A stretch of 64,000 bases of DNA, from contig NZ_KN046818.1 in assembly GCF_000742135.1 (NCBI RefSeq), forward strand, positions 2,868,097 through 2,932,096. Direction: 5' to 3'. Below, one piece after another: positions 1-9,181 of this stretch. This stretch comes from Klebsiella pneumoniae. Its GTDB lineage: Bacteria; Pseudomonadota; Gammaproteobacteria; Enterobacterales; Enterobacteriaceae. Position numbers and translations under genes: made by a program. The notes under the pieces are model-generated. The model made no database searches and was not told where the DNA came from. It was given only the letters and a program-made list of their open reading frames with translations. Each line of letters opens with the position of its first letter. Positions within the stretch are counted from its first letter, which is position 1.

Positions 1-330
1 ATACCAGACCGCCAGCGGCAGCGTCCCCAACAGCTGGTTAAACCATGCCAGCCGGGTGGGATGCCCATGGATCAGCTCATGCTGTAAGGACATATACCAG
101 GCGGTAAACCAGATCAACAGCAGCGTGGCCGGAAACAGTCCCAGCGTCCGCCAGCCCGCCACGCAGGCAAACCAGCCGCCGTAAACCGTCACAATCAGCA
201 GCCAGGTCGGCAGCTCGCTGCGCCACAGCCAGCTGCGCGCCAGCTGGCGGATCAGGATGCGCTGTTGGTCATCCACATAGACAGCCGTCTTCTTTTCCGT
301 CACTTCCGATACCTTGCCGTGTTGCCTCAT
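1..330 (-). CDS. Fatty acid desaturase family protein (3' part outside the window)
   Basis: The frame opens at the ATG whose complement is at 328-330 and runs off the left edge, giving 110 residues. A hydrophobic segment at about residues 37-75 is followed by the histidine box HELIHGHPTR, the first iron-binding box of the membrane fatty acid desaturase superfamily (PF00487). The protein is therefore probably a membrane di-iron desaturase or hydroxylase acting on acyl lipids. The other histidine boxes lie outside the window, so substrate and exact subfamily cannot be judged. Confidence 0.75.
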   Translation of the reverse strand, partial: MRQHGKVSEVTEKKTAVYVDDQQRILIRQLARSWLWRSELPTWLLIVTVYGGWFACVAGWRTLGLFPATLLLIWFTAWYMSLQHELIHGHPTRLAWFNQLLGTLPLAVWY

Positions 331-469
331 TCCCTCCGAAGATGTGAGATAACACGTTAAATAACAAAGTATTTAATTGACTTAGCTTTGCCAAAAAGCG
401 CGTTTGTGTTCAACAGGGCAAAGAGAATACCGTCCATGGCGCAACAGGTTGGCGGTGTTTAAACAGGTC

Positions 470-618
470 CATCGCCCGGCGGCGCTGCGCTTGCCGGGCC
501 TACGGGATACCCCCCTCCCCGGGCCATCCAGGCCGGTGCAGGCGCAGCGCCGCCGGACAAGGACAGCGGCGCCGCTTTTGTGCCGGGCGGCGGCGACGCC
601 TTGCCCGGCCTACGATCC
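470..618. repeat. REP/BIME-like palindromic repeat cluster
   Basis: The 331-742 interval has no convincing gene. It holds at least two REP-type palindromes, at 474-499 and 582-609, each shaped like the enterobacterial REP unit (GCCGGGCGGCG ... GCC-TTGCCCGGCCTAC), and a more degenerate GC-rich unit between them in inverted orientation (about 525-556). The TACG-like tail follows both clear units. Such clusters usually sit after convergent or tandem gene ends and can act in mRNA stabilisation, transcription termination or gyrase binding. The cluster lies downstream of the Anbu operon and upstream of the desaturase gene. Confidence 0.7.
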
Positions 619-742
619 GTGCGGCCTGTCGTTAATTTATTTACCGCTATTGCTGAAATTTTACCGCCAGGTCGAGGATACTTAAGGACTCCAGCGCCTT
701 ACCCGCCTTCGCGCCGACGATACCGGCGGAGCGTCACAGCGA

Positions 743-1489
743 CTACTCCTCTTCCCGCTCCGCTGGCGTCCAGGTCGGCAGAGTCTGGAAGGTGTGCAAC
801 AGCCCTTCGGACCACGCCTTGCGAATGCGGTTGAAGTAGGGATCGCTGTCGGTGATGCGATGCTGCCCGGCACTGCTGAAGCTGCCGCTGCGGTAGAGCA
901 GCGTATCCAGCGGCAGGCCGACGGACAGATTACTGCGCAGCGTCGAGTCAATGGAGATCAACGCGCAGCACATCGCCTGCTCCAGCGGCGTGTCGATGGT
1001 CAGCACCCGATCGATGATCGGTTTGCCGTATTTGCTTTCGCCAATCTGGAAATAAGGCGTGTCGCGGGTGGCTTCAATAAAGTTGCCCTCCGGATAAATA
1101 TGGAACAGACGATGGGGTTCGCCGGCGATCTGGCCGCCAAGCAGCAGGTTGCAGTTGAAGTTGGTGTTACTGCAGGTCTGCTGATTGCTGCTGTCGCGCT
1201 GGATCACCTCCAGCAGCGTTTTACCGATCAGCATCGCGGCGTCGTAGAGGGAAGTGACCTGCATCAGATTCGGCTCCTGCTGGGTACGGATGCGCGCGCT
1301 GAGCAGGCTTATCACGCTCTGGGTGGTGGCCAGATTGCCGGCGGATTGCAGCACCAGCACCCGTTCCCCCTCCTGATGGAAAACGTGCAGCTTTTTAAAA
1401 GTGGCAATATGGTCGACGCCCGCGTTGGTGCGGGAGTCGGAAGCAAACACCAGTCCATCCGCCAGGCACATGGCCACACAGTAGGTCAT
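743..1489 (-). CDS. Anbu proteasome-like peptidase
   Basis: This 248-residue protein starts MTYCVAMCLADG and has the Ntn-hydrolase layout of the proteasome beta/HslV family. Removal of Met1 would expose Thr as the N-terminal nucleophile. Asp18 lies in ASDSRTNAG, and Lys32/Lys33 are where the catalytic lysine is expected. It is much longer than HslV (about 175 residues) and fits the Anbu (ancestral beta subunit) family. It is the last gene of a four-gene operon, 16 bp after the transglutaminase gene. No unfoldase ATPase gene is nearby, unlike hslVU. Family knowledge says Anbu forms self-assembling particles of unclear proteolytic activity; the substrate is unknown. Confidence 0.88.
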   Translation of the reverse strand: MTYCVAMCLADGLVFASDSRTNAGVDHIATFKKLHVFHQEGERVLVLQSAGNLATTQSVISLLSARIRTQQEPNLMQVTSLYDAAMLIGKTLLEVIQRDSSNQQTCSNTNFNCNLLLGGQIAGEPHRLFHIYPEGNFIEATRDTPYFQIGESKYGKPIIDRVLTIDTPLEQAMCCALISIDSTLRSNLSVGLPLDTLLYRSGSFSSAGQHRITDSDPYFNRIRKAWSEGLLHTFQTLPTWTPAEREEE

Positions 1490-1505
1490 TGCGGTTATTC
1501 CCGTA

Positions 1506-2321
1506 TTATTGCTGCTGCGCCTGCTGGCTGTGTTCGCGCACTTCAGCGTTAGTTAACATAATCTCCCCGCCGCCGCCCAGCCGGGTGCCCCGTACCGGGC
1601 AGGCATCGAGATAATCCAGCCCGGTCGCCAGCCGTAAATGCTGATTCAGGCGACGGGTATTATTGGTGATATCAAACGACAGCCAGCGGCCGTCGAGCCA
1701 GACTTCCGCCCAGGCATGCATCGCCACATGCTGGGCGTTATCGCTGTAGACATAGCCGCTGACGTAGCGCGCCGGGATCTCCAGCGCGCGGCAGCAGGCG
1801 AGAAAAACATGGGTATGATCCTGGCACACCCCCTTCGCGCGGGCGAAGGCGTCGGCGGCGGAGTCCTGCACCTGGGTCGCGCCGGGGGAGTATGGCATTC
1901 TTAACAGCAGATCCGCCATCAGTTGATTCAGACTCTCTTCCGCCGCATCGGGACGATAGAGGCGCTGGGCAAACTCACGGATCGCCGTATCGGCGCGGGT
2001 TAGCGGCGTACAGCGCAGAAAAACCAGCGGCGACAGCAGCTCGGCCTCTTCATCACGCGTCTCCTCCCCTTCGTCGGCGATATCGACAATCCCGCTGGCG
2101 CGGATGGTGATCTCCTTGTGCGGGTTATCCAGCGTCAGCACATGCAGCACATTGCCCCAGCCGTCGGTAGTGGTCACCGCCGCGCCGTCCGGCAGGGTCA
2201 GCGTCCAGGCGGTGATCGTCTGCCGGGCGGTACTGCGTGGCGTCAGGCGCAGATACTGGGTGGAAAACTTCACTTCTTCATCGTAGCCATAGCGGGTGAG
2301 ATGATCGATGACCAGTTTCAT
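1506..2321 (-). CDS. Transglutaminase-like cysteine protease of the Anbu operon
   Basis: The 271-residue protein has the transglutaminase-like fold (PF01841) with an N-terminal beta domain (PF08379 type) over residues 1-80. The likely catalytic triad is Cys166 in GVCQDH, His202 in MHAWAEVW and Asp217 in SFDITN. Bacterial members usually hydrolyse or rearrange amide bonds rather than cross-link proteins. Its start overlaps the end of the alpha-E gene by 4 bp (ATGA type), so the two are translationally coupled. No signal peptide is visible, so the protein is expected in the cytoplasm. Its role with the ATP-grasp and Anbu proteins is inferred from conserved neighbourhood only. Confidence 0.85.
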   Translation of the reverse strand: MKLVIDHLTRYGYDEEVKFSTQYLRLTPRSTARQTITAWTLTLPDGAAVTTTDGWGNVLHVLTLDNPHKEITIRASGIVDIADEGEETRDEEAELLSPLVFLRCTPLTRADTAIREFAQRLYRPDAAEESLNQLMADLLLRMPYSPGATQVQDSAADAFARAKGVCQDHTHVFLACCRALEIPARYVSGYVYSDNAQHVAMHAWAEVWLDGRWLSFDITNNTRRLNQHLRLATGLDYLDACPVRGTRLGGGGEIMLTNAEVREHSQQAQQQ

Positions 2322-3247
2322 AAGGCCTCCAGGTAGGTTTGTCTGATGCTGTCGGACAGCGCGTTAATTCTCGCCAGTAGCCCGTTAAGGGTGGTCTGCA
2401 GGTCCGCCTGCGCCAGGTCGTCACGGGTGCTGAAGCGCAGGTCAACGTTGAGCTGATGGGCGAGGCGCAACGGCTGATAAGAACGATCGTTGGCAATCTT
2501 CTCCAGCTCGCCCACCAGGTCGGCAATGCTGGCGCGCAGCGAACGTGGAATATCGTTGCGCAGGATCAGCAGCTCCATCACCGTTTCGCGACTGACCGGC
2601 TGGCGGTAGAGGCTGTTGTAGGCTTCGCGGGCGCTGACCGCATTGAGCAGGGTATCCAGTCGGTAGTATTCCCGCACCGGATCCGGATCGTTGGTCAGCT
2701 GTTGATCCTTAATCAGCAGCAACTGGGTGGTGGCGAAGGCGCGCTCAATCAGGGTGCCGATACCGATAAAACTCAGGGCGTCGTTGCGCAGCAGCGTGCC
2801 GATCACTGCCCCGCGAAACAGATGCACCCGCTCTTTCACCCACTCAAAAAAGCCGTCGCTCCCCAGCTCGCCCAGCCCCTGCTGGCGGAGGGTCCGCAGT
2901 TCAATGCGGGTGGCATTGATGCTCTCCCACACTTCGGCCGACAGACTGCCGCGCACCGCGTGCGCATTGTTCCACGCCATCTCCACGCAGCTGTAAATAC
3001 TGCAGGGGTTGTTGCCATCAAGGGCAAAAAAGTTGAGCAGATTGCTCATGGTAAAGCGGGCATGGCGCGCCTGAAACAACTCGTGGGTCATCGACAAATT
3101 CAGCGGCAGCGCCAGATCCCGCGACTGCTGGCTGTGACGGGGGATCATCGATAATTTCCAGGTCACGTCCAGCACCCGGGCGTAGCTCTCCGCCCGCTCG
3201 AGATAGCGGGCCATCCAGAACAGTTCACTCGCCGTACGACTTAGCAT
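2318..3247 (-). CDS. Alpha-E domain protein (DUF403)
   Basis: The 309-residue, mostly helical protein begins MLSRTASELFWMARYLERAE, the typical opening of the alpha-E family (PF04168). No enzymatic motif is visible. In many bacteria this family is found fused to, or directly beside, circularly permuted ATP-grasp proteins, suggesting it is a partner or substrate-holding subunit of that ligase. It overlaps the upstream ATP-grasp gene by 7 bp and the downstream transglutaminase gene by 4 bp. Biochemical function is not known. Confidence 0.85.
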   Translation of the reverse strand: MLSRTASELFWMARYLERAESYARVLDVTWKLSMIPRHSQQSRDLALPLNLSMTHELFQARHARFTMSNLLNFFALDGNNPCSIYSCVEMAWNNAHAVRGSLSAEVWESINATRIELRTLRQQGLGELGSDGFFEWVKERVHLFRGAVIGTLLRNDALSFIGIGTLIERAFATTQLLLIKDQQLTNDPDPVREYYRLDTLLNAVSAREAYNSLYRQPVSRETVMELLILRNDIPRSLRASIADLVGELEKIANDRSYQPLRLAHQLNVDLRFSTRDDLAQADLQTTLNGLLARINALSDSIRQTYLEAL

Positions 3248-4680
3248 GATGCGTCATCCTCCATCACCCAGGTATCCTTGGTTCCGCCGCCCTGCGACGA
3301 GTTGACCACCAGCGACCCTTCGGTGAGGGCCACGCGGGTCAGGCCGCCGGGCACCAGCCGCATCTCCTGCCCGGACAGCACGTAGGGGCGTAAATCGATA
3401 TGCCGCGGCGACAGCCCTTCATCAACGAAGGTGGGGCAGGTCGACAGCGCGAGGGTGTCCTGGGCGATATAGTTGGCCGGATTGGCCAGCAGGCGCTGGC
3501 GGAAGGCCTCCCGCTCCTCTTTGGTGGAACGCGGGCCGACCAGCATGCCGTAGCCCCCGGCGCCATGGACCTCCTTGACCACCATCAGCTCGAGATTGCT
3601 CAGCACGTAGCGCAGGTCCTCCGCTTTCCGGCACTGCCAGGTGGGGATATTGCTGAGGATCGGCTGTTCGCCGAGGTAAAAGCGGATCATCTCCGGGACG
3701 TACGGATAGATCGATTTGTCGTCAGCCACCCCGGTGCCGATGGCGTTGGCCAGCACTACGCCGCCGGCGCGATAGACGGACAGCAGCCCCGGGACGCCGA
3801 GCATCGAATCGGCGCGGAAGGCCAGCGGGTCGAGCCAGGCGTCGTCGATGCGGCGATAAATCACATCCACCCGCCGCGGCCCCTCGGTGGTGCGCATATA
3901 CACCGCGCCGTTTTTAATAAACAGGTCGGCGCTCTCCACCAGCTCGACCCCCATCTGCTGCGCCAGGAAGCTGTGCTCGAAGTAGGCGCTGTTGAAGCGA
4001 CCCGGGGTCATCACCACGACGCAGGGATCATCCACCAGCGAGCTTTCGCGCAGGGTCTGCAGGAGGTAGCTCGGGTAGCGCTCCACCGGCGCAATATGAT
4101 GCTGCTCGAACATCTCCGGATAGAGGCGCATCATCATCTTACGGTTTTCGAGCATGTAGGAGACGCCGGACGGCGTGCGCAGATTATCCTCCAGCACGTA
4201 GTACTGACCGTCGTTATTGCGCACCATATCGACGCCGGTGATATGGGCATAGGTATTGTTTGGCAGGTTGATGCCCTGCATGCACGGCTGATACTGCTCG
4301 TTGGCCAGCACCTGCTCGGCCGGGATCAGCCCCGCGCGCAGGATATTCTGCTCATGATAGATGTCATAGAGGAAGGCGTTCAGCGCTTTCACCCGCTGGC
4401 GTATGCCGCGGTCAATGCGCTGCCACTCCCCGGCGGGTATGATCCGCGGCACGCTGTCAAACGGGATCAGCCGCTCGGTCCCCTCATCCTCGCCGTACAC
4501 GTTAAAGGTGATGCCGATACGGTGAAAAAGCAGTTCCGCTTGCGCTTTTTTCTGCCGGATAGAGAATTGATCGGTGTTGCGAAACCATTGCCACCAGGCA
4601 TTATAGTGCGGCCGCTGTTCACCCTGCGCGGTCAGCATCTCGTCATAATAATGCCCGTCAGGTAGCGTAATTTTAATCAT
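3241..4680 (-). CDS. Circularly permuted type-2 ATP-grasp protein
   Basis: This 479-residue protein is the first gene of the Anbu operon. It matches the circularly permuted ATP-grasp family (DUF404/DUF407). Recognisable segments are the N-terminal GITFNVYGEDEGTERLIPFD region, the DNLRTPSGVSY segment near residue 165, the VDVIYRRIDD segment in the middle and the C-terminal DLRPYVLSG motif. ATP-grasp enzymes join a carboxylate to an amine through an acyl-phosphate, so a peptide or amide ligase role is expected. The predicted acceptor and donor are unknown. The start at 4680 gives the length usual for the family. A 384-bp non-coding gap separates it from divergent treA. Confidence 0.87.
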   Translation of the reverse strand: MIKITLPDGHYYDEMLTAQGEQRPHYNAWWQWFRNTDQFSIRQKKAQAELLFHRIGITFNVYGEDEGTERLIPFDSVPRIIPAGEWQRIDRGIRQRVKALNAFLYDIYHEQNILRAGLIPAEQVLANEQYQPCMQGINLPNNTYAHITGVDMVRNNDGQYYVLEDNLRTPSGVSYMLENRKMMMRLYPEMFEQHHIAPVERYPSYLLQTLRESSLVDDPCVVVMTPGRFNSAYFEHSFLAQQMGVELVESADLFIKNGAVYMRTTEGPRRVDVIYRRIDDAWLDPLAFRADSMLGVPGLLSVYRAGGVVLANAIGTGVADDKSIYPYVPEMIRFYLGEQPILSNIPTWQCRKAEDLRYVLSNLELMVVKEVHGAGGYGMLVGPRSTKEEREAFRQRLLANPANYIAQDTLALSTCPTFVDEGLSPRHIDLRPYVLSGQEMRLVPGGLTRVALTEGSLVVNSSQGGGTKDTWVMEDDASC

Positions 4681-5064
4681 GGCTATCCCCTCCGGTTGTA
4701 CTCACTTTGTGGTAATCCCGCTAAGAGATAAGCATTAATTATGCCAGGTCCTCTGCCGCCGCGGCGTTGTGCAAATCGGTTCAGCCCCGCCGTCTGGTTG
4801 TGCAAAAAATCGACAAAACAGCCGCCCGCGCCCGGCGGCGGCTGCACCGTCGTGAGGCAGGGCGACGTTTTTTGCGCCATCGTGGACGCCAGCGCCCTCA
4901 GCCAGGCGGCCCAGCCCGCGGCGGTCTCAGGAGACCTGGCAGGTAAATCCTCTGTTTTCGCGCAAAATGTTACCCCTGACACGCGCAGCGGCAGATATTC
5001 GTCTAAGGTTTTTGGATGGCCAAACGTCGTGGCCCGCAGTCGATAATGATAAGGAGAACTCCCC
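4681..5064. promoter_or_regulatory. Divergent regulatory interval between the Anbu operon and treA
   Basis: This interval separates two divergently transcribed units and must carry both promoters. A clear Shine-Dalgarno sequence (AAGGAG at 5051-5056) serves treA. I could not assign -10 and -35 boxes with confidence. Open frames across it show no family resemblance and no plausible ribosome-binding site, so I see no gene here. Confidence 0.5.
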
Positions 5065-6810
5065 ATGACGAGTACTGATGCACGTCGTCCCGCTGCTTTG
5101 CCCTGTTCCCTGCGCCTGGCGATCGGCGGCGCTCTGATCGCCCTGATGAGCCTGAACGCTCAGGCGGAAGACGGCAAAACCGCGCCGCCCCCCTCGCCGG
5201 ATATTCTGCTGGGCCCGCTGTTCAATGATGTCCAGAGCGCGAAGCTGTTTGCCGATCAGAAAACCTTCGCCGACGCTATCCCTAACAGCGATCCGCTGAT
5301 GATCCTTGCCGATTACCGGATGCAAAAAAACCAGGCCAGCTTCGACCTGCGCCACTTCGTCGAACTGAACTTCACGCTGCCGAAAGAGAACGACACCTAT
5401 GTGCCGCCCAAAGGGCAAACTCTGCGTCAACATATCGATGGCCTGTGGCCGGTCCTGACCCGCAGCACCGTCGAGGTGGAAAAATGGGACTCGCTGCTGC
5501 CGCTGCCTAAGCCCTACGTGGTGCCCGGAGGACGTTTCCGCGAAGTCTATTACTGGGACAGCTATTTCACGATGCTGGGTCTTGCCGAAAGCGGTCACTG
5601 GGATAAAGTCGAGGATATGGTCGCCAACTTCGCCGCGGAAATTGACGCCTGGGGCCATATCCCCAACGGCAACCGCACCTATTATCTCAGCCGTTCGCAG
5701 CCCCCCTTCTTCTCCTTTATGGTGAGCCTGCTGGCGACGCACGATGGCGACCAGGTGCTGAAAACCTACCAGCCGCAGCTGGAGAAAGAGTATCGCTACT
5801 GGATGGCCGGAGCGGACGCGCTGGCTCCCGGCAGCGCCGACAAACGGGCGGTGCGGATGGCGGACGGCGCGCTGCTCAACCGCTACTGGGACGATAACGA
5901 CACCCCGCGTCCCGAGTCCTGGCTTGACGACGTCAAAACCGCCAAAAGCAACCCGAATCGTCCGGCAACCGAGATCTATCGCGACCTGCGCTCCGCCGCC
6001 GCCTCCGGCTGGGATTTCAGCTCCCGCTGGATGGACAATCCGCAGCAGCTCGCCACCATTCGCACCACCTCGATTGTCCCGGTCGATCTCAATGCCCTGA
6101 TGTTCCATCTGGAGAAAACCCTCGCCCGCGCCAGCAAGGCATCCGGGGACAGCGCTGGCGCTACGCAGTACGATGCGCTGGCTAACGCCCGCCAGCAGGC
6201 CATCGAGAAATACCTGTGGAATGATAAAGAGGGATGGTACGCCGACTACGATCTGAAAAGCCACAAGGTGCGCAATCAGCTGACCGCGGCGGCGCTGTTC
6301 CCGCTGTACGTCAATGCCGCGTCACGCGAGCGGGCGACGAAAGTGGCCGCCGCCGCCGAGTCGCGCCTGCTTAAACCCGGCGGGCTGACCACCACCATCG
6401 TCAACAGCGGCCAGCAGTGGGACGCTCCCAACGGCTGGGCGCCGCTGCAGTGGGTGGCGGTCGAGGGGCTGCAAAACTATGGTCAGCAGAAGATCGCCAT
6501 GGAGGTCACCTGGCGCTTCCTGACCAACGTGCAGCATACCTATGACAGTAAGCAAAAGCTGGTGGAGAAGTATGACGTGAGCTCGACCGGCACCGGCGGC
6601 GGCGGCGGGGAATATCCGCTGCAGGACGGCTTTGGCTGGACCAACGGCGTCACCCTGAAGATGTTGGATCTGATCTGCCCGCAGGAGAAACCCTGCGATG
6701 CGCTGCCCGCTACCCGTCCGGCGACAACCCCTTCACCGCAGGACAAACCTGTTGCGGCGCCCGCGGCTAACGACCCCGCCCCTGCGGAACCGCAAAAGAC
6801 CGGCTCCTGA
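5065..6810 (+). CDS. treA: Periplasmic trehalase TreA
   Basis: The 581-residue enzyme hydrolyses alpha,alpha-trehalose to two glucoses in the periplasm (glycoside hydrolase family 37). An N-terminal signal peptide ends near LNAQA-ED (about residue 34). The two trehalase signatures are present: [15 protein letters not shown] (about residues 153-167) and [10 protein letters not shown] (about residues 451-460), and a glycine-rich [16 protein letters not shown] segment lies near the C-terminus. A proline/alanine-rich tail of some 40 residues follows the catalytic domain, making it slightly longer than E. coli TreA (565). The ATG at 5065 has AAGGAG 8 bp upstream. In E. coli treA is osmotically induced through RpoS. 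Confidence 0.96.
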
Positions 6811-6849
6811 CGCTTCGCCGCCCCTACCAAAATCGGTAGGGGGAAGCGG
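6811..6849 (+). terminator. Hairpin after treA
   Basis: A long stem with CCCCTACC and GGTAGGGG arms around AAAATC, extended by CGCTTC/GAAGCG, follows the treA stop codon immediately. No T-tract follows, so it could be a Rho-dependent or mRNA-protecting structure instead of a classical terminator. Confidence 0.5.
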
Positions 6850-6961
6850 TCTCCCTGGTCACTACCGTCCCGCGCAGACCCATTCTGCGGCTCGCGGGAA
6901 ACACATCCCCACCCCCTCGCGTTGAACAGGTCACCTTTTCGCTTGACCGCACAAATACAAA

Positions 6962-6976
6962 CAATAATAATTCGCA
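6962..6976 (+). promoter_or_regulatory. Candidate Fur box upstream of the foxA-like gene
   Basis: CAATAATAATTCGCA matches the 7-1-7 Fur consensus TGATAAT-N-ATTATCA at 10 of 14 defined positions. It lies about 85 bp before the receptor start, in an AT-rich stretch unlike the flanking GC-rich DNA, where a promoter would be expected. Iron repression of siderophore receptors by Fur is general, so the position fits; binding is inferred. Confidence 0.5.
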
Positions 6977-7060
6977 TTACTTTTTAACGAATAATGACAG
7001 ATTCGTTTTTCACGCGGCGGCGTACAGGAGTACCAGACCGCGTTGGTTCAGGATGATCTT

Positions 7061-9181
7061 ATGAACGTGGCTATTTCTCGAAAACGCCCGGGGCTGCTGT
7101 ATGCCCTTGCGGTCACACTCCCCTTCACCGCGCAAGCCGAAGAGACGGTGGTGGTCACTGCCACCCCGCCGGCGTCCGCCAGCGCGCCGACGGAGGGCTA
7201 CAGCGCCAGCACCTCGCTCGGGGCGACGAAAACCGACCAGCCGTTAATCACTACCGCCCAGTCGGTGTCGGTGGTCACCCGCCAGCAGATGGCGGATCAG
7301 GGGGCGAATACCATCAGCCAGGCGCTGGAATATACCCCGGGGGTCTACTCCAGCTTCGGCGGCGGCGCCACCCGGTTCGACGCCATCTCCCTGCGCGGCC
7401 ACCACGGCGGCGACGTCGATAACCTGTTCCTCGACGGCATGCGCCTGATGAGCGACGGCGGCAGCCATAACGTACTGCAAATCGACCCGTGGTTTATCGA
7501 ACGCGTGGATGTGATCCGCGGCCCCTCCTCCGCGCTCTACGGGCAGAGCGTGCCGGGCGGCGTGGTCAACCTGACTTCCAAACGTCCGCAGTTCAGTCAG
7601 CAGGGCCACATCCGCCTGACCGGCGGCACGCAAAATACCAAAGGCGCGGCCTTCGATTACACCGACGCCATCAATGACCAGTGGGCATGGCGGCTGATCG
7701 GGATGACCCGCAGCAGCGACACGCAGTATGACCATACCCGCGAAGAGCGCTACGCGATTTCGCCTTCCCTGCTGTGGCAGCCGGACAGCGACACCTCGCT
7801 GCTGCTGCGCGCCTATCTGCAAAAAGATCCTTCCGGCGGCTACCACGGCTCTTTGCCGCTGGACGGCACCCGCTACGCGCACAATGGCCGTAAGCTCTCC
7901 CCCAGCACCAACGAAGGCGATCCGGGAGATGGCTATCAACGCCGCCAGCAGATCTACAGCTATGAGTTTGACCACCAGTTCACCGACGTCTGGTCGGTCT
8001 ATTCCGCCGGGAGCTACACCCATACCAACGTCTCCCTCGATCAGGTCTACCAGGTCGGCTGGATAGATGACAGCGACATGCTGGCCCGCGGCTACAGCGG
8101 TTCGCGCGGTTCGCTGGACGGCTGGTCAACCGATAACCGCCTGCGCGCCGATTTCAATACAGGCGACCTGGCGCACACCCTGATCCTCGGCGCCGAATAT
8201 CATCGCTTCCGTAACGACCTGTGGACCGGCGCCGGCGGCGCGGCGCCCCTTAACCCGTTTAGCGGCTATACCGCGCAGACCGGACATACCGTTACCTACA
8301 GCGACGACAATAATCGCCGCTATTACCAGACCGGGCTGTATCTGCAGGATGAGATGGTCTGGAACCGCTGGCATGTGGATGTTTCCGCCCGCTACGACCG
8401 CATCGTTTCCCAGCAGGTCAGCGATACCCAGGGGACCTCAAACCGCCGTTCAGACGACCATATCAGCGGCCGCGCCTCGCTGTTGTACGCCCTGGACAAC
8501 GGTCTGTCGCCCTACCTGAGCTACAGCCAGGCGATCACTCCGGCGATGCTGCCGGGCGCGGACGGCAAACCGTTGAAACCGACCACCGCCGAACAGGTTG
8601 AAGCCGGCCTGAAGTTCCAGCCGCCGGGCAGCAGCGATCTCTATAGCATCGCGATTTACGACCTGACGCAAAAGGATGTCGCCACTCGCGACCCGAACAT
8701 CGCCACCGCCACCTATATTCCGGCGGGTAAGGTCCATTCCCAGGGCGTTGAGCTGGAAGCGCACCACCAGATCACCCCGCAGCTGAGTACTATCGCCTCG
8801 TATACCTGGAATCGTCTGCGTTTCCAGGACACCAAAGACGGGACCGACAATAACACGCCGCAGCTGACCCCGGATCAGATGGCCTCCTTCTGGGCGCGCT
8901 ATCAGTTCCCGGCGGGGATCTCCGTTGGCGCCGGCGTCCGCTACATCGGTAAACAGTGGGCGGATGATGCCAACACCGCGCGGCTGCCGTCGGTCACGCT
9001 GATGGACGCCATGATGCGGGCCGACCTCGGCGTCTGGTCGCCAACGCTGAAAGGCGCATATGTGCAGGTTAACGCCAACAATATCGGCGACCGCGAGTAT
9101 ATTTCCGGCTGCTATGGCACCGGCAACTGTTACTGGGGAGCAGAGCGCAGCGTTATAGCCACCGTGGGCTACGATTTCTGA
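7061..9181 (+). CDS. foxA: TonB-dependent siderophore receptor, FoxA type (ferrioxamine B)
   Basis: The 706-residue outer-membrane receptor has a signal peptide ending at FTAQA (residue 26), a TonB box ETVVVTATP directly after it, a plug domain (about residues 50-160, with RGPSSALYGQSVPGG) and a 22-strand barrel ending in the C-terminal phenylalanine VGYDF. It belongs to the TIGR01783 siderophore receptors and resembles Klebsiella FoxA, which imports ferrioxamine B. The ATG at 7061 is chosen over a TTG 18 bp upstream because AGGA (7050-7053) sits 7 bp before it. It is a single-gene unit, absent from this place in E. coli. Ligand identity rests on recognition only. Confidence 0.85.
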   Translation: MNVAISRKRPGLLYALAVTLPFTAQAEETVVVTATPPASASAPTEGYSASTSLGATKTDQPLITTAQSVSVVTRQQMADQGANTISQALEYTPGVYSSFGGGATRFDAISLRGHHGGDVDNLFLDGMRLMSDGGSHNVLQIDPWFIERVDVIRGPSSALYGQSVPGGVVNLTSKRPQFSQQGHIRLTGGTQNTKGAAFDYTDAINDQWAWRLIGMTRSSDTQYDHTREERYAISPSLLWQPDSDTSLLLRAYLQKDPSGGYHGSLPLDGTRYAHNGRKLSPSTNEGDPGDGYQRRQQIYSYEFDHQFTDVWSVYSAGSYTHTNVSLDQVYQVGWIDDSDMLARGYSGSRGSLDGWSTDNRLRADFNTGDLAHTLILGAEYHRFRNDLWTGAGGAAPLNPFSGYTAQTGHTVTYSDDNNRRYYQTGLYLQDEMVWNRWHVDVSARYDRIVSQQVSDTQGTSNRRSDDHISGRASLLYALDNGLSPYLSYSQAITPAMLPGADGKPLKPTTAEQVEAGLKFQPPGSSDLYSIAIYDLTQKDVATRDPNIATATYIPAGKVHSQGVELEAHHQITPQLSTIASYTWNRLRFQDTKDGTDNNTPQLTPDQMASFWARYQFPAGISVGAGVRYIGKQWADDANTARLPSVTLMDAMMRADLGVWSPTLKGAYVQVNANNIGDREYISGCYGTGNCYWGAERSVIATVGYDF

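What the first reader, a model, noticed from the sequence alone, without database searches (positions are those of the whole stretch)
743..4680. Compact four-gene Anbu operon: predicted peptide-ligation and proteolysis system of unknown substrate
Four genes overlap or nearly touch (7-bp and 4-bp overlaps, 16-bp gap): circularly permuted ATP-grasp, alpha-E, transglutaminase-like protease with Cys166-His202-Asp217, and an Anbu Ntn-hydrolase with Thr as the exposed N-terminal residue. All key residues are kept, so this is a working pathway. The set is known from other bacteria and has been predicted to make and cut peptides or tag proteins, but no physiological substrate is known. There is no unfoldase gene beside Anbu, which argues against a classical proteasome and for a small-peptide substrate.
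Basis: partly seen in the sequence, partly recalled or inferred. Interest (0 to 1): 0.78.

Follow-up and report, generated by a model that had tools for sequence, protein, structure and literature searches.

The report
Nitrogen-starvation Anbu peptide-ligase operon
This Klebsiella chromosome carries the known four-gene Anbu cluster (a ligase, its partner and two cutting enzymes), and a conserved promoter sequence in front of it predicts that the genes are switched on when nitrogen runs short, likely to join and cut small amide-linked peptides whose identity remains unknown.

The parts
3241..4680 (-). Circularly permuted ATP-grasp ligase, 479 aa
2318..3247 (-). Alpha-E protein, 309 aa, two duplicated helical halves
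   Evidence: PF04168; AF2 pLDDT 90.5; N half versus C half HHalign probability 98.3, E 1.4e-13
1506..2321 (-). Transglutaminase-like cysteine enzyme, 271 aa, Cys166-His202-Asp217
   Evidence: PF08379+PF01841; 3isr E 3.5e-17; Cys and His kept in 63 of 66 relatives
743..1489 (-). Anbu Ntn-hydrolase, 248 aa, Thr next to the initiator Met
   Evidence: 5nyw E 4e-108; Thr1/Asp17/Lys32 in 69 of 70 neighbours, the other a broken fragment
4731..4747 (-). Predicted sigma54 -24/-12 element CTGGCATAATTAATGCT, 50 bp before the ATP-grasp ATG
   Evidence: 12 of 13 consensus positions; only site of this score on either strand of the window; 1 of 5000 shuffles; conserved
4843..4859 (-). Candidate NtrC dyad TGCCTCACGACGGTGCA, 112 bp upstream of the -24 box
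   Evidence: 10 of 12 consensus positions, P 0.045 alone; spacing close to the glnK (110) and cytosine permease (118) sites in this genome

Best explanation
The four genes are a known kind of Anbu cluster that sits directly behind a sigma54-type promoter sequence with an NtrC-like site, and it is predicted to be one nitrogen-starvation operon whose glutathione/glutathionylspermidine-synthetase-like ATP-grasp enzyme, with alpha-E, would make a small peptide or peptide-amine amide that the TG-like cysteine enzyme and Anbu would likely cut. Steps. (1) Low nitrogen: phosphorylated NtrC and sigma54 RNA polymerase start transcription about 40 bp before the ATP-grasp gene (predicted here; nitrogen or NtrC response shown by others for relatives in P. 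putida and B. cenocepacia). (2) ATP-grasp, working as a unit with alpha-E, activates a carboxylate with ATP and joins it to an amine (inferred from fold, conserved residues and published phosphate release). (3) TG and Anbu hydrolyse or mature that amide, a make-and-break cycle comparable in logic to glutathionylspermidine synthetase/amidase (inferred). The substrate is not identified.
Against: No transcript or activity was measured here. The window's NtrC dyad alone is weak (P 0.045). In P. putida one study found the Anbu gene 1.12-fold in wild type and the other three genes still induced 14-20-fold in an rpoN mutant, although urtA-D were also still induced there (PMC7801951). More distant ATP-grasp genes often lack the promoter: >=11 in 7 of 30, 6 of 29 and 14 of 30 loci; five of six Luteimonas/Lysobacteraceae loci lack it. 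Terminator-like hairpins are more frequent than chance in 300..5200 (11 vs 3.2 expected), five of them on the operon strand inside genes. The fold does not name a substrate, and parts of the ATP-grasp model are low confidence. Anbu forms a proteasome-like assembly and binds epoxomicin, which its authors take as support for protein degradation and against a peptide-synthesis role (PMC5666114).
Confidence: 0.45

Rival explanations
1. Nitrogen-starvation protein turnover: Anbu is the end point, a self-compartmentalising protease that degrades proteins, with the ATP-grasp enzyme marking or preparing them, comparable to the Pup-proteasome system (comparison recalled).
For: Anbu forms an open-ring assembly and its Thr1 reacts with epoxomicin and MG132 (PMC5666114); nitrogen-linked expression.
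Against: No activity on the 20S-type substrates tried; no unfoldase beside it; 10 of 55 genomes with ATP-grasp and alpha-E lack Anbu, whereas 3 of 48 Anbu-matching genomes lack the core, two of them with partial matches; no extra gene of 60 aa or more outside the four is shared by more than 11 of 36 genus labels, so no linked Pup-like tag of that size.
Confidence: 0.25
2. Protein tagging and untagging: the ATP-grasp enzyme adds amino acids to a protein as RimK does, and TG and Anbu remove them, deubiquitinase-like.
For: Proposed for this operon (as cited in PMC6376114); RimK/RimB and Rlo are precedents that pair an ATP-grasp with a protease (PMC12239564).
Confidence: 0.15
3. Amine salvage by temporary conjugation, as in gamma-glutamylputrescine catabolism: the ligase caps an amine so it can be processed and the hydrolases release the nitrogen.
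For: Ntr-type promoter; fold neighbours that use spermidine.
Against: No oxidase or transaminase was seen among gene clusters shared by five or more genus labels; a mixed set of ABC ATPases lies at varied places in 8 labels (products judged by eye). The Puu comparison is recalled.
Confidence: 0.1
4. The promoter match is real sigma54 but is driven by another enhancer-binding protein, or not driven at all in Klebsiella, so nitrogen is not the signal here.
For: The window's dyad is 10 of 12 with P 0.045; 15 of 34 first-per-genus loci have no dyad >=10.
Against: Enrichment over controls and published NtrC dependence in a relative.
Confidence: 0.12

Closest known systems
Anbu operon of Yersinia bercovieri and Pseudomonas (Anbu, TG, alpha-E, ATP-grasp)
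   Same: Same four families; Anbu matches the Y. bercovieri chain 5nyw over residues 1-238 at E 4e-108; Thr1/Asp17/Lys32 kept.
   Different: Nothing in kind; this is a Klebsiella copy. The sigma54/NtrC footprint across Enterobacterales did not turn up in the library searches.
NtrC/nitrogen-responsive relatives: B. cenocepacia I35_5080-83 and P. putida PP_2685-2688
   Same: ATP-grasp, alpha-E and TG genes under nitrogen or NtrC control (PMC5491218, PMC8050072, PMC7801951; passages).
   Different: Those are measured; here control is predicted from sequence. The Burkholderia passages list a large TG protein and no Anbu.
Glutathionylspermidine synthetase/amidase, trypanothione synthetase, E. coli YgiC/YjfC peptide-spermidine ligases, fungal Cp1B
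   Different: Sequence identity only 8-12%; here the cysteine enzyme is a TG-type protein, and alpha-E and Anbu have no counterpart that I know of; substrates not tested.
Rim (RimK/RimB) and Rlo systems
   Same: ATP-grasp ligase paired with a protease in an operon; Rlo also has a TG-domain protein.

Membership tests
Anbu (ancestral beta subunit) | Sequence match to solved Anbu proteins and Thr1 next to Met with Asp17 and Lys32 | tested here: met
   5nyw E 4e-108; residues present in the window
Anbu (ancestral beta subunit) | Ring or lock-washer assembly of dimers | not testable with these tools
   Known from published structures only (passages)
Anbu operon (ATP-grasp, alpha-E, TG, Anbu) | Four families adjacent and co-directional | tested here: met
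Anbu operon (ATP-grasp, alpha-E, TG, Anbu) | One transcript | not testable with these tools
   Overlaps conserved, terminator-like hairpins above chance; no RNA data
Ntr (sigma54/NtrC) regulon | GG-N10-GC -24/-12 element close to the start codon, conserved in relatives | tested here: met
Ntr (sigma54/NtrC) regulon | NtrC binding site upstream | tested here: inconclusive
   Window dyad 10/12, P 0.045; enriched across genera
Ntr (sigma54/NtrC) regulon | Expression depends on NtrC and low nitrogen | not testable with these tools
   Published for relatives only; one contrary rpoN result
Glutathione/glutathionylspermidine/YgiC-type amide ligases | Shared fold over most of the protein | tested here: met
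Glutathione/glutathionylspermidine/YgiC-type amide ligases | Peptide plus amine ligase activity | not testable with these tools
   Only phosphate release is published for the Yersinia homologue
Proteasome/HslUV-type degradation machine | Partner unfoldase encoded with the protease | tested here: not met
   None beside Anbu; an HslU-like ATPase ORF sits with hslV elsewhere
Known anti-phage defence systems | Match to PADLOC models | tested here: not met
   0 families for 4 proteins

The most novel reading that the evidence does not exclude
The Anbu operon is a nitrogen-starvation peptide-amine conjugation cycle: the ATP-grasp/alpha-E pair makes a new small conjugate of the glutathionylspermidine type, and Anbu is no protein-degrading proteasome but a ring-shaped amidase dedicated to that conjugate, alongside a cysteine amidase of TG type. 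This would explain why Anbu did not cut the proteasome substrates tried and why Anbu is rarely found without the ligase core but the core is found without Anbu.
Probability: 0.22. Interest if true: 0.82.

Novelty: new member of a known kind. Interest (0 to 1): 0.5.

Why it matters
Anbu was named in 2008 and its crystal structures were published in 2017, yet its substrate is unknown and the published peptidase assays that I saw (passages) were negative. A conserved nitrogen-stress promoter across more than 30 genus labels says when to look (nitrogen starvation), and the ligase fold says what to look for first (small peptide-amine amides rather than tagged proteins). Together they make an old open question directly testable in laboratory strains. 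The finding that the ligase pair is the constant core and both hydrolases are optional changes which protein should be assayed first.

Tried and rejected
Encoded tag peptide: clustering of ORFs of 60 aa or more in the 80 loci gave no extra gene that travels with the operon; outside the four genes no cluster is in more than 11 of 36 genus labels. The main ones are a pyrBI/ridA-like block upstream (10-11 labels, names by eye), a mixed set of ABC ATPases at varied places (8) and a P-type-ATPase-like gene downstream (6). Shorter peptides were not searched.

Defence system: no PADLOC match. RNA element: no Rfam match in 1..8000. Sigma70 promoter: one match, inside the ATP-grasp gene, against 1.9 expected. 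E. coli copies: no megablast match in 20,395 E. coli records.

Generality of the promoter: weaker among ATP-grasp loci of 29-69% identity, where 27 of 89 reach >=11 within 250 bp (a few loci there are closer relatives). I dropped the wider claim that every CP-ATP-grasp locus is sigma54-controlled. No matched control was run for those 250-bp windows.

K. oxytoca diazotrophy, P. stutzeri and Caulobacter NtrC papers: term searches of the main text found nothing on this operon. Supplements were not available.

Rows dropped before counts: the NtrC tests use only loci whose sigma54 score is >=10 (34 of 36 first-per-genus; window plus 35). In one search the ATP-grasp 'missing' rows come from my position filter; five loci (L107, L116, L121, L141, L144) are cut by contig ends. 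The 80 loci are the best 80 of 96 relatives. In one search two ATP-grasp, one alpha-E and three Anbu fragments of the tables were left out.

Full report
The window lies in a 5.5-Mb genome. Window 700-5100 matches three K. pneumoniae records at 96.5-99.3% identity, so I treat it as Klebsiella. The 7-bp and 4-bp overlaps are conserved in 48 and 55 of 67 loci that have the first three genes, which supports one operon but is not transcript evidence; terminator-like hairpins in 300..5200 are above chance (11 against 3.2 expected), five of them on the operon strand inside genes.

Catalytic residues. Among the neighbours of 80 ATP-grasp loci (best 80 of 96), Thr1, Asp17 and Lys32 of Anbu are the same in the window and 69 of 70 Anbu ORFs; the other is a fragment of the broken copy L083. 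TG Cys166 and His202 are kept in the window and 63 of 66 aligned TGs; one is cut by a contig end, and the two real exceptions are Uliginosibacterium loci, where no Anbu was found next door. Six Luteimonas/Lysobacteraceae loci and one beta-proteobacterial MAG have Anbu and no small TG match in the locus; in the MAG a 1160-aa ORF that looks like the large TG follows Anbu (by eye).

Core and accessories. In 185 Gammaproteobacteria, ATP-grasp and alpha-E were each found in 55 genomes and these are the same 55; all 74 ATP-grasp hits copied into the count have alpha-E beside them on the same strand. Anbu matches were found in 48, of which 45 have the core; the three without it are a 78%-complete genome and two with partial matches over about 126 residues. 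Ten of 55 core genomes lack an Anbu match. Of 52 Anbu places copied, 7 are same-strand downstream as here, 15 divergent, 13 opposite-strand downstream, 12 on another contig of a genome with the core, 3 in genomes without the core, 1 far away, 1 same-strand upstream. Some of the 12 may be contig breaks, but in G107 Anbu lies about 270 kb from ATP-grasp on one contig. So the compact four-gene layout is one arrangement among several. In Enterobacterales the core is patchy: 24 of 197 genomes, and 20 of 149 in the family.

Promoter. The minus strand before the ATP-grasp gene reads CTGGCATAATTAATGCT, 50 bp from the ATG. It scores 12 of 13 against the sigma54 consensus (recalled) and is the only site of that score on either strand of the window; 1 of 5000 shuffles of the 120-bp upstream reached 12. 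Within 120 bp of the start, scores >=10 occur in 74 of 80 loci against 37 of 691 upstreams of other ORFs in the same loci and 236 of 4000 shuffles. The six that fail are the broken symbiont copy L083 and five of the six Luteimonas/Lysobacteraceae loci. Upstream of the -24 box, NtrC-like dyads (TGCACY-N5-RGTGCA, recalled) of >=10/12 are found in 19 of 34 first-per-genus loci against 8 of 297 control upstreams, and >=11 in 9 against 1.

Genome control. The pattern YTGGCAYRN5TGCW hits 25 places in this genome against 7 for the reversed pattern. I ran family searches on the gene after 6 of the other 24: glnK, cytosine permease, astC-type transaminase and prkA pass their curated cut-offs; a lysine/arginine-type binding protein and an ExaC-like aldehyde dehydrogenase (cut by the locus end) score below theirs. 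Dyads >=10 occur at 5 of 25: glnK, permease, binding protein, aldehyde dehydrogenase and this operon, with the dyad 110, 118, 124, 101 and 112 bp before the box. A full ntrC gene is present.

Published regulation. PMC5491218 (passages): B. cenocepacia I35_5080 to 5083 are listed at -8.2, -9.4, -9.4 and -6.0 in an ntrC mutant. PMC8050072 (passages and one section): PP_2685 and PP_2688 log2 4.4 and 4.0, PP_2688 promoter 3.7-fold, PP_2685 fragment constitutive (as was the glnK fragment). PMC7801951 (passages): PP_2686-2688 up 11-15-fold in wild type, but PP_2685 1.12-fold, and induction persists in an rpoN mutant, as it does for urtA-D. PMC13207237 (passages) predicts an RpoN site TGGCCCGGCCCTTGC 113 bp before a CP_ATPgrasp gene in Bradyrhizobium; three unnamed loci here show TGGCCCG-type sites at 111-112 bp. 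Hervas 2008 and 2009, Iyer 2009 and Valas and Bourne 2008 were not held and are known only through citing papers. The Enterobacterales footprint did not turn up in my searches of the library, which holds open-licence papers only.

Alpha-E. No solved relative by sequence up to E 10. The model is confident (pLDDT 90.5) and all helical; the two halves, split at residue 153, align to each other over 151 columns with probability 98.3 and E 1.4e-13, while five column-shuffled controls stayed at or below 1.3. The [LI]ERA motif occurs once in each half. Alpha-E thus looks like a duplicated helical domain; one search of the library for this found nothing.

Synthesis. Shown directly: gene content, residues, promoter-like sequence and its conservation, co-occurrence, fold similarity, duplication. 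Inferred: single transcript, nitrogen induction in Klebsiella, amide ligase chemistry, hydrolysis by TG and Anbu, and their order. The best fit is a nitrogen-starvation make-and-break module for a small amide, with protein turnover as the main rival.

Noticed in passing
window 4869..4910 (approx.), minus strand; L033:10121-11035: An alpha/beta hydrolase gene (best NCBIfam match PaeX esterase, below cut-off) lies just upstream of ATP-grasp on a K. pneumoniae plasmid and near it in 8 of 11 Klebsiella/Raoultella/Enterobacter loci; the window keeps only a short match to its 3' end (by eye), so the gene appears lost here.
   Followed up: partly
L033 (NZ_CP084831.1 103374-120641): The whole operon with its sigma54 site, a trehalase gene and a TonB receptor gene sits on a 173-kb plasmid typed as conjugative (IncFII) in a water isolate, with an IS1634 transposase close by.
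   Followed up: partly
L083: In Candidatus Symbiopectobacterium endolongispinus the alpha-E and Anbu matches are each split in two frames and no sigma54 core site was found upstream, while ATP-grasp is still matched over its full length.
   Followed up: no
L127:8421-9176, L129:8454-9287: TG homologues without the catalytic Cys and His stand in the operon in Uliginosibacterium, with a second TG gene near by and, in L129, a second ATP-grasp gene.
   Followed up: partly
genome G000:C1 site L193: An ExaC-like aldehyde dehydrogenase gene has a sigma54 match and an NtrC-like dyad of 10/12 in front of it.
   Followed up: no
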